DNA of 64,000 bases from Solirubrobacterales bacterium (lineage in GTDB: Bacteria > Actinomycetota > Thermoleophilia > Solirubrobacterales > 70-9), in NCBI GenBank assembly GCA_025936755.1, contig JAICSS010000012.1, forward strand, positions 1-64,000, written 5' to 3'. A program made the translations under genes and the position numbers. The notes under the pieces were generated by a model that was not told the DNA's origin, did no database searches, and saw only the letters and a program-made list of their open reading frames with translations. Positions 4,702-51,568 of the stretch are shown here, in pieces. Within the stretch, counting starts at the first letter, position 1, and every line of letters begins with the position of its first letter.

Positions 4702-5116
4702 GACGAAGACCGGACAGGCGAAGCGGGTCGGGGCGGCCGACAAGCGGCCGCCGGCGCCGTGGGGGAACGCGCCGCTGGCCGAGCTGGTCATCCTCGCCGG
4801 CATCGTCGCCCTGGCGATCGGGGTGATCGGCGGCCACCCGACGGCGATCGCGGCCGGGGTTGCCCTGGCCGGGCTGGGCGGAGTCGAGGTGGCGATCCGC
4901 GAGCACTTCGCCGGCTACCGCTCCCACACGACCCTGCTCGCCGGCGCCGCCTTCGTCCTCGTCACCGGCCTCGTCTTCTACGCGGCGAACCAGATCCTCG
5001 CGGTGGCGCTGGCGGTGGGGGCCGTCGCTTTCGCGCTGACCTTCTACCTGGCTCGCCGCGCATTCCAGCGCGCCTCCGGCGGTCTCAGCTACCGGATCGG
5101 CGGAATGCGCGGGTAA
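4691..5116 (+). CDS. small integral membrane protein
   Basis: 141 residues from TTG at 4691, overlapping the upstream gene by 11 bases. The N-terminal 25 residues are basic and cytoplasmic-looking (many Lys/Arg). Four hydrophobic stretches follow at about 28-46, 50-66, 78-96 and 100-118, and a short basic tail. Nothing catalytic is visible and I do not assign a function. The only start codon that keeps the basic N-terminus is the TTG; its ribosome binding site is weak, in keeping with coupling to the gene before it. The gene is convergent with the IHF-like gene at 5174-5542, with a terminator between them. Confidence 0.6.
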   Translation: MTGKTKTGQAKRVGAADKRPPAPWGNAPLAELVILAGIVALAIGVIGGHPTAIAAGVALAGLGGVEVAIREHFAGYRSHTTLLAGAAFVLVTGLVFYAANQILAVALAVGAVAFALTFYLARRAFQRASGGLSYRIGGMRG

Positions 5117-5130
5117 AAGCGCCGCGACCG

Positions 5131-5163
5131 AAAAAACGCCGCGACCGCTGACGCGGCCGCGGC
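5131..5163 (-). terminator. Rho-independent terminator of the IHF-like gene
   Basis: On the minus strand, 10 bases after the stop at 5174, a 10-bp stem (5154-5163 with 5138-5147, one G-U pair, loop 5148-5153) is followed by six T (5131-5136). The run GCGCCGCGACCG also occurs at 5120-5130, so the arm is partly duplicated next to the T-tract. Confidence 0.8.
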
Positions 5164-5173
5164 AGCGGCAAGG

Positions 5174-5542
5174 TCAGACGGCGAGGGGCTCCCGAAGGTT
5201 CGAGCGGGTGGCGAGCTCGTTGGCGAGGATCCGGCGCTGCCGGGACGTCAGCGTCCCCAGCTGCTTGTTCTCGTTGAGGGAGAGGGGCAGGAGGAACTTC
5301 CGCGCCCGGGTCCGCCCCCAGCGGCGCTGGCTGGTCAAGAGCTCGGCGATGGTCATGCTCTCGGTCTCCCACGGGCAGTCTCGAACCACCTCCGCGGCAT
5401 CCATGTCTCCTCGGGCGATCGCGCGCTTCAGCTCGGCCCGCGCAAGCCGCACCATGTTGGCTCTCTCCAGGGCCCTCATGTGCTGCGGTGCCTCGGCTGG
5501 GGCTGCGATGGTCGATGGTGGTGCCGGTGAGGCAGCTTCCAC
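5174..5542 (-). CDS. actinobacterial integration host factor-like DNA-binding protein (H2TH)
   Basis: 122 residues. The C-terminal part (MTIAELLTSQRRWGRTRARKF, then LTSRQRRILANEL) lines up with mycobacterial IHF: an AELL helix, a G-RTRA-K helix-two-turn-helix segment related to ribosomal protein S13, and a final helix with clustered Arg. Such proteins bind and bend DNA with low specificity and organise the nucleoid. The Pro/Ala-rich N-terminal 30 residues are extra. I placed the start at GTG 5542 because GGAGG stands seven bases before it; an ATG 60 bases further upstream is in frame but has no such site. The gene has its own terminator and a candidate promoter about 150 bases upstream, so the 5' leader is long. 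Family is likely; which IHF-type role it plays is unknown. Confidence 0.72.
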   Translation of the reverse strand: MEAASPAPPSTIAAPAEAPQHMRALERANMVRLARAELKRAIARGDMDAAEVVRDCPWETESMTIAELLTSQRRWGRTRARKFLLPLSLNENKQLGTLTSRQRRILANELATRSNLREPLAV

Positions 5543-30726: not shown

Positions 30727-31728
30727 ATGGAAGTCCTGCTCCTGCTCGTCAGCTTCGCGATCGTCCTCACGGGCGCGCTGATCTTCACCAACGCGGTGGA
30801 GTGGATCGGCCACCGGCTCGAGGTCGGGGTGGGGGCGGTGGGGAGCATTCTCGCCGCGGTCGGGACGGCGATGCCGGAGACGCTGATCGCGATCGTCGCC
30901 CTGGTCGACGCCAACGAGCGCTCCGAAGGCGTCGCGATCGGCGCGATCGTCGGCGCCCCCTTCCTGCTCGGCACCCTGGCGATGGGGCTGGTCGGGCTCT
31001 TCGCCTACCTCTACCGCGACAAACGCGACCAGGGCCTGGAGCTGAACGTCCACCGGCCGACGCTCGAGCGCGACCTGCTCTTCTTCCTCTCGCTGTTCGC
31101 CCTCGGCGGCATGCTCGCCTGGGGACCTCCGGCGGAGGTGCGGATCCCGGTCGGCATCGCCTTCCTCGCCGCCTACGTCCTCTACATCCGCCTGACCCTG
31201 AAGGGCGGGGGGGACGTGCAGAGCGAGGAGTCGCTCAACCCGCTGATCTTCGAGCGCCGGCCCGAGCGGCGGGAAGAGCCCGCCCTGGCCCTCTGCGTGA
31301 TCCAGCTCCTGGTCGGCCTCGGGGCGATGGTCGGCGGCGCCCACCTCTTCGTCGAGGAGCTCCTCCACATCGCCGAGAGCATCGGGGTCGAGCCCCTCAT
31401 CCTGGCGCTGATCCTGGCGCCGCTGGCGACCGAGCTGCCGGAGAAGGTGAACAGCTTCTTCTGGGTGCGGGAAGGCAAGGACGCCCTGGCGTTGGGCAAC
31501 ATCAGCGGCGCCATGGTCTTCCAGTCGACGATCCCGGTCGGGATCGGCCTGATCTTCACCGAATGGGACCTCAGCTGGACCGCGATCCTCTCGATCGCCC
31601 TCGGCCTCGCCGGCGGCCTCCTCGCCTACGAGAGCCTGCACCGGGCGCGGCGGTTCAAGCTGCCCGCCGTGATCGGCTGGTTCGCGCTCTACGGCGCGTT
31701 CCTCGCAACCGTTGTCGCCAGCGCCTGA
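30727..31728 (+). CDS. sodium/calcium exchanger family (YrbG-like) antiporter
   Basis: 333 residues, about ten helices. The alpha-1 repeat is GTAMPETLIAIVALVDAN and alpha-2 is ATELPEKVNSFFWVREGKDALALGNISGAMVFQSTIPVG, matching the YrbG branch of the CaCA superfamily. Pro-Glu in each repeat is the ion-binding pair. A cytoplasmic loop at about 165-190 is Arg/Glu-rich. Different from the CAX-type gene just upstream in sequence and repeat motifs, so the tandem is not a recent duplication. Ion specificity is not readable by eye. It has its own -10 motif and abuts the peroxiredoxin gene end to end (stop 31728, stop 31729). Confidence 0.85.
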   Translation: MEVLLLLVSFAIVLTGALIFTNAVEWIGHRLEVGVGAVGSILAAVGTAMPETLIAIVALVDANERSEGVAIGAIVGAPFLLGTLAMGLVGLFAYLYRDKRDQGLELNVHRPTLERDLLFFLSLFALGGMLAWGPPAEVRIPVGIAFLAAYVLYIRLTLKGGGDVQSEESLNPLIFERRPERREEPALALCVIQLLVGLGAMVGGAHLFVEELLHIAESIGVEPLILALILAPLATELPEKVNSFFWVREGKDALALGNISGAMVFQSTIPVGIGLIFTEWDLSWTAILSIALGLAGGLLAYESLHRARRFKLPAVIGWFALYGAFLATVVASA

Positions 31729-32199
31729 TCAGGCGGCGGCGAGCTCGGCGAGCGCCTTCAGGACCAGCTCGTCGTGCTTTTTCGGCTGGACTTTCGGAAA
31801 GACCCTGGCGATCTTGCCCTTCGGGTCGATGATGAAGGTGGCGCGGGCGACGCCCATGTACTTGCGCCCGTACATCGACTTCTCGACCCAGGCGCCGTAC
31901 TTCTCCGCCACCGCGTGGTCGGCGTCGGCGAGCAGGGTGAAGTCGAGGCCGTATTTGCCGGCGAATCCGTCGACGTCCTTCACCTCGTCGGGCGAGACCC
32001 CGATCACCCGCGCCCCGGCGGCCTCGTAGTCGGCGCGGCGGTCGCGGACCCCGCAGGCCTGGGTGGTGCAGCCGGAGGTATCGGCCTTCGGGTAGAAGTA
32101 GAGGACGACGGTCTGTCCCCGCAGATCGGAGAGCTTCACCTTCTCGCCGTTCTGGTCGGGCAGGGTGAAGCTCGGTGCTTTGTCCCCCTCGGCGAGCAT
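31729..32199 (-). CDS. bcp: atypical 2-Cys peroxiredoxin (BCP/PrxQ type)
   Basis: 156 residues, the normal BCP length. FYPKADTSGCTTQACGVRD carries the peroxidatic Cys44 and, five residues on, the resolving Cys49, the spacing of the intramolecular-disulfide BCP/PrxQ class. GVSPDEVKDVDGFAGKYGLDFTLLAD and RATFIIDPKG are further family marks. It reduces hydroperoxides with thioredoxin as electron donor. ATG 32199 has a GGAGGGG ribosome binding site. Upstream gene ends two bases before its start, so the three minus-strand genes from 33013 down form an operon. Confidence 0.94.
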   Translation of the reverse strand: MLAEGDKAPSFTLPDQNGEKVKLSDLRGQTVVLYFYPKADTSGCTTQACGVRDRRADYEAAGARVIGVSPDEVKDVDGFAGKYGLDFTLLADADHAVAEKYGAWVEKSMYGRKYMGVARATFIIDPKGKIARVFPKVQPKKHDELVLKALAELAAA

Positions 32200-49183: not shown

Positions 49184-49321
49184 GTGATTCCTCTCGCAGC
49201 AGCTGAGACCTGGTGGGCCGTCCTCGGCGGCCTGATCCCGATCATCGGCCTCGCCCTCCTCAGCTACATCATCTATCTAGCCGTGAAGAAAGGTGACGAT
49301 GGGGAAGACGGCTCTCGGTAG
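49184..49321 (+). CDS. 45-residue single-helix membrane protein
   Basis: Too small for routine gene calling. From GTG 49184, nine bases after the P450 stop: a short polar start (VIPLAAAETWW), one hydrophobic helix of about 23 residues (VLGGLIPIIGLALLSYIIYLAV) and a charged tail (KKGDDGEDGSR). The stop codon lies within the left arm of the 108-base inverted repeat. The helix and the positive-inside Lys pair look like a genuine small membrane protein, but no ribosome binding site is clear. It could be co-transcribed with the P450. Confidence 0.45.
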   Translation: MIPLAAAETWWAVLGGLIPIIGLALLSYIIYLAVKKGDDGEDGSR

Positions 49322-49414
49322 GGGTTGAACGGCTTGTACTTTTTTGGGCGCGCAGCCGGCGCCAGCCGGCGGCGCGAGTAAAAAAGTTGAGAGAGACCCC
49401 TACCGAGAGCCGTC
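49307..49414. repeat. 108-base nested inverted repeat next to glutamine synthetase
   Basis: Outer 18-bp perfect arms (49307-49324 and 49397-49414, starting GACGGCTCTCGG). Inside: ACTTTTTT/AAAAAAGT arms, then GCGC and GCCGGC arms around a GCCA loop near the centre. On both strands the T-run precedes and the A-run follows the central hairpin, opposite to a Rho-independent terminator. It lies between a plus-strand gene and the minus-strand glutamine synthetase stop (10 bases away). Confidence 0.85.
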
Positions 49415-49423
49415 CCTCGAGCG

Positions 49424-51568
49424 CTACTTGATGAACAGCATCTCCTCGTACTTCGGCAGCGGCCAGAGGTCGTCGGCGACGACGCGCTCGAGCTTGTCGG
49501 CGGCGTCGCGGACGCTGTCCATCGCGCCGAGCTGCTTGTCGCGGGCGTGCTTGGCCATCTCCAGGCCCTCGAGGCCGGGGTCGGCGTTGGCCGCTTCCAG
49601 CTCTCCCAGGCCGGCGACCAGCTCGTCGACGAGGCCGCGGACCTCGCCCTCGATGGCCGAGACGCCGGACTCGCCGATCAGCGCCAGATAGCGCAGCGCC
49701 GCCGGCAGGATCATCGTCTTCGCGATCGAGAAGGCCGTCTCCGCCTCGATGTTGGCCCGCAGCCAGTACTGCTCGACCCAGACCTCGTAGCGGGACTCCA
49801 GCTCCCCTTTGGAGAGGACGTGGTAGTTCTCGAACGCCGCGACGGTGCTGTCGGCCAGCACCTCCGGCAGCGCGTCCGGGGTCGTTTTCAGGTTCTTCAG
49901 CCCGCGCCGCTCGGCCTCCCGGTGCCACTCCTCGGAGTAGTTGTCGCCGCCGAAGCAGATCTCCTTGTTGGCCAGGTAGCTCTCTTTGACGATCTCGATC
50001 ACGGCCTGCGGCATCTGCTCGCCGCCGTTCAGCCTCGCCTCCAGCTTGCCGGCGAGCTCGTCGATCGCCTCGGCCGCGATCGTGTTCAGGACCGTGTTCG
50101 GGAAGCCGAGCGACATGCTCGACCCCAGCGCCCGGAACTCGAATTTGTTGCCGGTGAAGGCGAACGGCGAGGTGCGGTTGCGGTCGCCGCCGTGCAGCGG
50201 CAGCGGCGGCAGCACCTGCGCCCCGAGGTCGAGGAAGGAGGCCGGCGTGTTCGGGTCGCCTTCGCCGGTCGCGATCGCCTCGAACGCTTTTTCCAGCTCA
50301 CCGCCGAGGAAGATCGAGATGATCGCCGGCGGCGCCTCGTTGGCGCCGAGGCGGTGGTCCTGGCCGATGTTCGCGACCGAGGCGCGCAGCAGCCCCTGGT
50401 GCTTGTTGACCGCCTGGATCACCGCCGTGCAGAAGAACAGGAAGTGGATGTTGTCCGCCGGCGTCTCGCCCGGGTTGAGCAGGTTGGCGCCGGTGTCGGT
50501 CCCCATCGACCAGTTGTTGTGCTTGCCGGAGCCGTTGACCCCGGCGAACGGCTTCTCGTGCAGGAGGCAGACGAGGCCGTAGCGGCGGGCGACGTTTTCC
50601 AGCGTCTGCATCAGCAGCTGCTGATGGTCGGAGCCGACGTTGGAGTTCTCGAAGATCGGGGCGATCTCGTACTGGGCCGGCGCCACCTCGTTGTGGCGGG
50701 TCTTGACCGGGATCCCGAGCTTGCGCATCTCCAGCTCCGACTCGAGCATGAAGGCGAGCACCCGCTCCGGGATCGAGCCGAAGTAGTGGTCGTCTAGCTC
50801 GTGGCCCTTCGGCGGCTTGGCGCCGAAGAGGGTGCGGCCGGTGGCGATCAGGTCGGGCCGCTCGAAGAAGTACTGCTCGTCGATCAGGAAGTACTCCTGC
50901 TCGGGGCCGACGGTGGTGAAGACGCGCTGGCTCTCCTCGTCGCCGAGCAGCCGCAGCGCCTTGATCGCCGAGCGACTGAGGGCGTCCATCGAGCGCAGCA
51001 GCGGGATCTTCGCGTCGAGCGCCTCGCCGGTCCAGGAGGCGAAGGCGGTGGGGATGCAGAGCAGCGCCCCGTTCGGGTTCTCGAGGATGAAGGCGGGGCT
51101 GGTCGGGTCCCAGGCGGTGTAGCCGCGGGCCTCGAAGGTGGCGCGGACGCCGCCGGTCGGGAACGAGGAGGCGTCGGGCTCGCCCTGGATCAGCTCCTTG
51201 CCGGAGAAGCCGGCCAGCGCCTTGCCTTCGTCGGCCGGCTCGAAGAAGGAGTCGTGCTTCTCCGCGGTCGAGCCGGTCAGCGGCTGGAACATGTGGGTGT
51301 AGTGGGTGGCGCCGTTCTCCAGCGCCCATTCCTTCATCGCCTCGGCGACCGCGTCGGCCAGGCTCGGATCCAGCGCCTCGCCGCCCTCGAGCGTCGTCTG
51401 CAGCTTCTCGAAGACGTCCTTCGGCAGCCGGTCCTTCTGCGCCGCTGCCGAGAACACGTTCTGCCCGAACGGGTTGTTCTCCGGGATGGTCAGGTCCTGC
51501 GCGCCGAGGGCCCCTCCGTTGGAGCTCCACTGGGCCGCGGTCACGTTTTGCTGGCGAATGCGAGTCAT
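49424..51568 (-). CDS. glnN: type III glutamine synthetase
   Basis: 714 residues, twice the length of GSI and typical for GSIII. Diagnostic segments: [99 protein letters not shown] and [19 protein letters not shown]. It makes glutamine from glutamate and ammonia with ATP; GSIII is found in cyanobacteria, Bacteroidetes and some Actinobacteria. An ammonium transporter lies 5 kb away. The start lies about 120 bases downstream of an inverted repeat (51685-51702) that may be a regulatory site. Convergent with the small membrane gene, with a 108-base inverted repeat between. Confidence 0.95.

What the first reader, a model, noticed from the sequence alone, without database searches (positions are those of the whole stretch)
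49307..49414. 108-base nested inverted repeat with reversed terminator polarity
Seen: 18-bp perfect outer arms, an asymmetric internal loop, T6/A6 arms and a GC-rich core with palindromic GCCGGC. On both strands the T-run comes before and the A-run after the core hairpin, so it is not a normal bidirectional terminator. It sits in a 102-base gap between a small membrane gene and the glutamine synthetase stop, with its left arm holding the small gene's stop codon. It could be a mobile palindrome, a structured RNA or a 3'-UTR element.
Basis: seen in the sequence. Interest (0 to 1): 0.6.

Follow-up and report, generated by a model that had tools for sequence, protein, structure and literature searches.

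The report
Dispersed mobile DNA hairpin after genes
The hairpin is one copy of a previously undescribed family of about 110-base palindromes scattered after genes in two related genera of soil actinobacteria; it behaves like a small mobile element, but none of the enzymes that move similar elements elsewhere was found in these genomes.

Summary
The hairpin at 49307-49414 is real (RNA fold z = -8.3) and is not a one-off. It belongs to a dispersed family: two copies in its own genome and 1 to about 50 covariance-model matches per genome in 13 relatives. The family occurs in only two genera of the Solirubrobacterales 70-9 family. It matches no Rfam family and no other genus searched. About 145 copies share an asymmetric core: a CG[T/G] bulge, CTTGTAC/GTTRAG, and a GA/GA or GRA/GRA loop. 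The core sits between a variable tip and roughly 20-bp arms that change from copy to copy yet stay complementary. The T6/A6 runs are simply the two sides of one stem; other subfamilies use GC pairs there, so terminator polarity is a red herring. Copies lie directly after stop codons, sometimes as inverted pairs. Empty orthologous sites, recent amplification in two genomes and a neighbour gene with an altered end show that it inserts. Best explanation: a REP/REPIN-like non-autonomous mobile hairpin, probably recognised as a folded single strand. It lacks the GTAG tag and the Y1/RAYT transposase that define classical REPs, so it works like a REP but cannot be filed as one. A 3'-UTR RNA or terminator role is the main rival.

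The parts
49307..49414 (+). complete palindromic element (family orientation '+', i.e. GAACGGCTTGTAC reads on the + strand)
   Evidence: covariance-model hits 49306-49415, E 1.4e-17 with R1 and 6.3e-17 with R2
49307..49326 (+). left outer arm; contains the TAG stop (49319-49321) of the small ORF
   Evidence: arms covary between copies
49395..49414 (+). right outer arm, complementary to the left arm
49327..49339 (+). left side of the conserved core: GAA, CGG bulge, CTTGTAC
   Evidence: near-invariant in the alignments
49386..49394 (+). right side of the conserved core: GTTGAG, AGA
   Evidence: near-invariant in the alignments
49340..49345 (+). T6, left strand of the inner stem
   Evidence: the stem is conserved as pairs, not as T/A, in other subfamilies
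49380..49385 (+). A6, right strand of the inner stem
49346..49379 (+). variable GC-rich tip (GCCGGC hairpin in this copy); tips are partly homogenised within a genome
49184..49321 (+). small membrane ORF (45 aa) whose C-terminus ends inside the left arm; orthologues in relatives without the element end in a different, mostly longer tail
49424..51568 (-). type III glutamine synthetase; its stop is about 9 nt from the element, and the same site is occupied in two relatives
31728..31750 (.). empty orthologous site in this window (two abutting convergent stops, GCCTGATCAGGC) of an element present in relative G026

Best explanation
A member of a lineage-restricted family of non-autonomous mobile hairpins that works like REP/REPIN elements. 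Shown here: a hairpin of about 110 nt with a conserved asymmetric core and copy-specific but self-complementary arms; dispersed copies after stop codons, singly or as inverted pairs; empty orthologous sites; recent expansions in two genomes; persistence at orthologous sites in two genera with compensatory change in the arms. Inferred: during replication or transcription the strand reading GAACG[G/T]CTTGTAC folds on its own; an unidentified enzyme recognises the bulged core on that strand, as TnpA-REP recognises the bulge of E. coli REPs; and the unit (single hairpin, or hairpin-spacer-inverted hairpin) is copied into compact 3' ends of genes, where it does little harm and even supplies stop codons. 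Afterwards the arms drift but stay paired, either through selection for a foldable substrate or through template-switch correction of palindromes, while tips are partly homogenised within a genome.
For: Dispersed family: second own copy at C1:114358-114470 and many copies in relatives. Covariation: 97.8% of 721 cells paired, 22 of 33 pairs with two-sided changes, 0 of 500 shuffles as high, and every slid control far lower; 714 double-changed cells in 88 copies. Empty sites: G026 copy vs this window 31728-31750, G031 copy between a TGA and the dxr start vs empty G019, G031 copy vs G009/G006/G011; an inverted pair in G001 vs empty G002 and G010, with only one arm left in G004. At the glutamine synthetase site it is present in G000, G001 and G010, truncated in G004 and absent in G003, G005, G006, G008, G009 and G011. 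Recent expansions: G005 units of about 356-380 bp whose similarity ends at the palindrome edge, and about 35 similar copies in G001. Inverted pairs. In recent G001 copies the palindrome continues into unique flank, mean 3.46 bp vs 0.64 in swapped-flank controls, as if inserted into small hairpins. Arms are more alike at the same site than elsewhere (0.667 vs 0.519), and tips are more alike within a genome (0.593 vs 0.514). Wobble pairs favour the '+' strand (46 G.T vs 24 A.C, p = 0.012).
Against: No transposase was found: Y1_Tnp is absent from every element-bearing genome, no integron integrase passes the cut-off, and a reverse transcriptase occurs in only 3 of 14 element-bearing genomes. The copies carry no gene, and no target-site duplication was seen by eye. 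Strong persistence at orthologous sites and the orientation bias after stop codons (30 of 41 tandem contexts) would also fit a cellular RNA role. The genomes are MAGs, so absence of a gene is not proof.
Confidence: 0.7

Rival explanations
1. A cis-acting 3'-UTR RNA element or unusual transcription terminator: the hairpin forms in the mRNA just after the stop codon and stops polymerase, blocks exonucleases or binds a protein through its conserved internal loop.
For: 59 of 65 copies with a co-oriented upstream gene have its stop codon within -45 to +20 nt of the arm edge. In tandem contexts the same strand is in the transcript in 30 of 41 (p = 0.004). Strong covariation. At the glutamine synthetase site relative G007 has an ordinary A4/T4 hairpin terminator instead.
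Against: No U-tract follows the hairpin. Purine GA/GA loops and G.T wobbles favour the opposite strand, the one antisense to the gene. Some copies lie in divergent upstream regions. Copy number varies from 0 to about 50 between congeners, and orthologous genes in relatives manage without it.
Confidence: 0.17
2. A cellular DNA-binding site (nucleoid, gyrase or recombination factor) whose copies co-evolve with their binding protein.
For: Genome-specific core changes such as CTTGCAC in G026 and partly homogenised tips.
Against: Copy number too variable (0 in G002, 2 in G000, about 50 in G001); arms and tips differ widely; recent bursts in single genomes.
Confidence: 0.07
3. A member of integron attC-type sites or of classical GTAG REP elements.
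For: GTTAAGY resembles the attC R box GTTRRRY, with extrahelical bases and a variable tip. Size, inverted pairing and extragenic location resemble REPINs.
Against: No integron integrase over the cut-off and no cassette arrays. No Y1 transposase in any carrier, no constant GTAG head, and a much longer stem.
Confidence: 0.05
4. Chance or decayed sequence without function.
For: Only two copies in this genome.
Against: About 145 homologous copies with hundreds of compensatory changes.
Confidence: 0.01

Closest known systems
REPINs / REP-BIME elements (RAYT-associated; PMC3116915, PMC8266576)
   Same: Non-autonomous extragenic palindromes, single or as inverted pairs, folding into long hairpins of about 70-110 nt; irregular bulge in the stem; genome-specific families; intergenic locations
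   Different: No GTAG head, 20-bp arms that differ from copy to copy, a conserved 110-nt core architecture, and no Y1/RAYT gene in any carrier genome
CGTC-tagged REPs (PMC3733652)
   Same: Palindromic repeats without a dedicated transposase; some copies here carry CGTC in the core bulge (CGTCTTGTAC)
   Different: CGTC REPs have 8-9 bp stems, 4-5 nt loops and a terminal CGTC tag; here CGTC is internal, changes to CGGC or CGTT, and the stem is far longer; the paper lists CGTC repeats in five phyla, none of them Actinobacteria
Correia/NEMIS and ERIC elements (from general knowledge, not tested here)
   Same: Transcribed-region palindromic miniature elements of 100-150 bp near gene ends
   Different: Those have conserved terminal arms; here the arms are the most variable part and the interior is conserved
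Integron attC sites (general knowledge)
   Same: Imperfect palindrome with extrahelical bases, a variable tip and a GTTRRRY-like box
   Different: No integrase, no gene cassettes, and long paired arms outside the boxes

Membership tests
Classical REP / REPIN (GTAG type) | imperfect palindrome repeated in extragenic space | tested here: met
   dispersed extragenic copies
Classical REP / REPIN (GTAG type) | conserved unpaired GTAG (or variant) tetranucleotide at one end | tested here: not met
   flanks and arm ends vary between copies
Classical REP / REPIN (GTAG type) | Y1 tyrosine transposase (RAYT) in the genome | tested here: not met
   PF01797 absent in all g1 and g9 genomes of the family search; the genomes are MAGs 73-100% complete
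Classical REP / REPIN (GTAG type) | inverted pairs as a replicative unit | tested here: met
   EL(-)/EL(+) pairs at several loci; one pair versus empty sites
CGTC REP | terminal CGTC tag, 8-9 bp stem | tested here: not met
   alignments
Integron attC | integron integrase in the genome | tested here: not met
   TIGR02249: 0 of 50 genomes over the cut-off
Integron attC | GTTRRRY box | tested here: inconclusive
   GTTAAGY matches but its partner strand does not
Known Rfam RNA family | covariance-model score over the gathering threshold | tested here: not met
   no hit over threshold at the element
Intrinsic terminator | GC stem followed directly by a U-tract | tested here: not met
   sequence
Retron / group II intron-like retroelement | reverse transcriptase in the carriers | tested here: not met
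   PF00078 in only 3 of 14 carriers searched
3'-UTR structured RNA | transcript that folds and is processed or stable | not testable with these tools
   no RNA data

The most novel reading that the evidence does not exclude
A new class of mobile hairpin moved by an enzyme unrelated to the Y1/RAYT transposases, which recognises a folded single strand with a CG-bulged, GA/GA-loop core and inserts into small palindromes at the 3' ends of genes; its arms co-vary in place after insertion and its tips are exchanged between copies.
Probability: 0.35. Interest if true: 0.75.

Novelty: new variant of a known kind. Interest (0 to 1): 0.6.

Why it matters
REP-like palindromes are among the commonest bacterial repeats, yet some families, such as the CGTC REPs, have no known mobilising enzyme. 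This family keeps its arms complementary while their sequence changes, has insertions with recognisable empty sites, and occurs in a lineage where no Y1 transposase was found. It therefore offers a clean case for finding how such hairpins spread without RAYTs, and for separating selection from template-switch correction as the cause of arm covariation. It would also be a new repeat family for annotating Thermoleophilia genomes.

Tried and rejected
Rfam scan: only sub-threshold microRNA-like matches, as expected of any long hairpin. attC site: integron integrase absent. RAYT/REP membership: Y1_Tnp absent. Retroelement: reverse transcriptase patchy. Viral origin: no match to the core pattern in viral contigs. 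Wide distribution: the core pattern in 84,980 species hit 43 Actinobacteria stretches, nearly all titled Solirubrobacterales or Thermoleophilia, and one Ignavibacteria stretch taken as chance; model R2 found only two genera among 54 in the order and 128 in the class. Terminator polarity: rejected because the T/A stem is replaced by GC pairs elsewhere. A conserved helix in the tip was not found.

Full report
The two outer arms (49307-49325 and 49396-49414) are perfectly complementary, the whole folds far better than shuffles (z = -8.3; for DNA), and it fills the 102-base space between a 45-aa membrane ORF, whose TAG lies in the left arm, and the stop of a type III glutamine synthetase.

It is a family. 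A DNA search of the window's own assembly gave a second, diverged copy on contig C1. A search of 100 relatives gave many more in a few genomes. Aligning 22 copies showed the anatomy, read on the window's + strand: variable arm; GRA (or GA); one R-Y pair; CG[T/G] bulge; CTT paired with RAG; GU opposite U; AC plus an inner stem; a tip of about 35 nt; then the matching right side AAAAAGTTRAG-Y-GRA and the right arm. In this structure 97.8% of cells pair, 22 of 33 pairs have changes on both sides, and no shuffle or slid control comes close. With 88 copies there are 714 double-changed cells. The T6/A6 runs are one stem: in G007 it is ACCCT/AGGGT or ACCTTCC/GGAAGGT, and in G005 and G001 other sequences again.

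Distribution. Model R1 found the family in two of twelve genera of the window's taxonomic family. R2 found it in the same two of 54 genera in the order (232 genomes) and of 128 in the class (399 genomes). An exact core pattern run over 84,980 species hit 43 stretches of actinobacterial MAGs, nearly all titled Solirubrobacterales or Thermoleophilia, including 'Solirubrobacterales bacterium 70-9', and one Ignavibacteria stretch taken as chance. No viral contig matched. R2 matches per genome: G001 53 (some may be the two strands of one copy), G031 24, G019 18, G007 15, G005, G010 and G026 12 each, G004 and G011 10 each, G006 7, G003 6, G009 4, the window's genome 2, G008 1, G002 0.

Position. Of 83 copies with genes called on both sides and no false ORF across them, 33 are convergent, 41 tandem and 9 divergent. 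In tandem contexts the same strand follows the gene in 30 of 41 (p = 0.004), and the upstream stop codon is within -45 to +20 nt of the arm in 59 of 65. The conserved TAA in CTTAAC and the TAG in GGTAGGGG serve as stop codons for several genes that run into the element. Close inverted pairs, '-' left and '+' right, 80 to 440 bp apart, occur between convergent genes and also in divergent regions.

It inserts. At the glutamine synthetase site the element is present in G000, G001 and G010, half-deleted in G004 and absent in six congeners, where the gap to the convergent ORF is as short as 12 nt; G007 has an ordinary terminator hairpin there. The neighbouring small protein lacks the tail seen in most relatives without the element. 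Clean filled/empty pairs: G026 against this very window at 31728-31750, where two stops abut as GCCTGATCAGGC; G031 against G019 between a TGA and the dxr start; G031 against G009, G006 and G011; an inverted pair in G001 against empty G002 and G010, with only one arm left in G004. G005 carries a recent burst of units of about 356-380 bp whose similarity stops at the palindrome's outer edge, and G001 another of about 35 hairpins. In those G001 copies the complementarity runs on into unique flank (mean 3.46 bp, up to 9, against 0.64 when flanks are swapped). In relatives some of these sites hold small palindromes (GCGGGCCTAGGCCCGC, GGGGGCTATAGACCCCC), which suggests, but does not prove, insertion into small hairpins.

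It persists. Twenty groups of copies share orthologous flanking genes, some across the two genera. Arms are more alike at the same site (0.667) than elsewhere (0.519). Tips are more alike within one genome at different sites (0.593) than between genomes and sites (0.514) (the pairs are not independent, so the p-values are indicative only). So arms are inherited and co-vary in place, while tips are partly homogenised within a genome. G.T wobbles outnumber A.C (46 to 24, p = 0.012) and folding is slightly better on the + strand. This is weak evidence that the recognised strand is the one antisense to the adjacent gene, which argues for folded DNA, or a transcript from that strand, rather than for the gene's mRNA.

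Mechanism. The closest working analogue is REP/REPIN transposition, in which a Y1 enzyme binds a bulged single-stranded hairpin in a strand-specific way (PMC8266576) and inverted doublets are proposed to move as a unit (PMC3116915). But no Y1 transposase was found in any carrier genome, no integron integrase passes its cut-off, and reverse transcriptases are patchy. CGTC REPs are a precedent for palindromes without a dedicated transposase (PMC3733652). I conclude that this is a mobile hairpin that works like a REPIN but fails the membership tests for the GTAG and CGTC REP families; its enzyme is unknown.

Limits. Nearly all relatives are draft MAGs and several copies lie at contig ends, as repeats do. 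There are no RNA data. Gene calls are mine (codon-usage ORFs). A left-hand region with an AAGCT motif is enriched 20-100 nt before the hairpin and may belong to the full mobile unit, whose left end I could not define outside G005. My literature search found no description of this family, but only open-licence papers are held.

Noticed in passing
L020 687-826 and L022 2212-2355: c-di-AMP riboswitch (RF00379) near the orthologous G001/G010 copies, above the gathering score.
   Followed up: no
20-100 nt left of the hairpins in many loci, e.g. L053, L063, L117: AAGCT-containing motif strongly enriched (AAAGCT 11 vs 0.5 expected, AAGCTC 23 vs 3.2), possibly part of a larger mobile unit.
   Followed up: partly
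L187-L195 (G005), about 235 bp left of the hairpin: An optional inner hairpin CCCCTCCCGAAAACGCTCC...GGAGTGTTTTCGGGAGGGG is present in some copies of the unit and absent in others.
   Followed up: partly
L309 (G004) at the desaturase site; L210 (G004) after glutamine synthetase: Solo arm or half-element remnants, i.e. elements seem to decay by loss of the hairpin between or beyond the arms.
   Followed up: partly
window 5112-5176: Short gap with a terminator-like hairpin, orthologous to a site that holds a unit of about 440 bp in G001 (L308).
   Followed up: partly
L211 (G007) after glutamine synthetase: Perfect hairpin GATGGGCCGAAAACCCGCCATATAGGCGGGTTTTCGGCCCATC, an ordinary bidirectional terminator, where relatives carry the element.
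   Followed up: no
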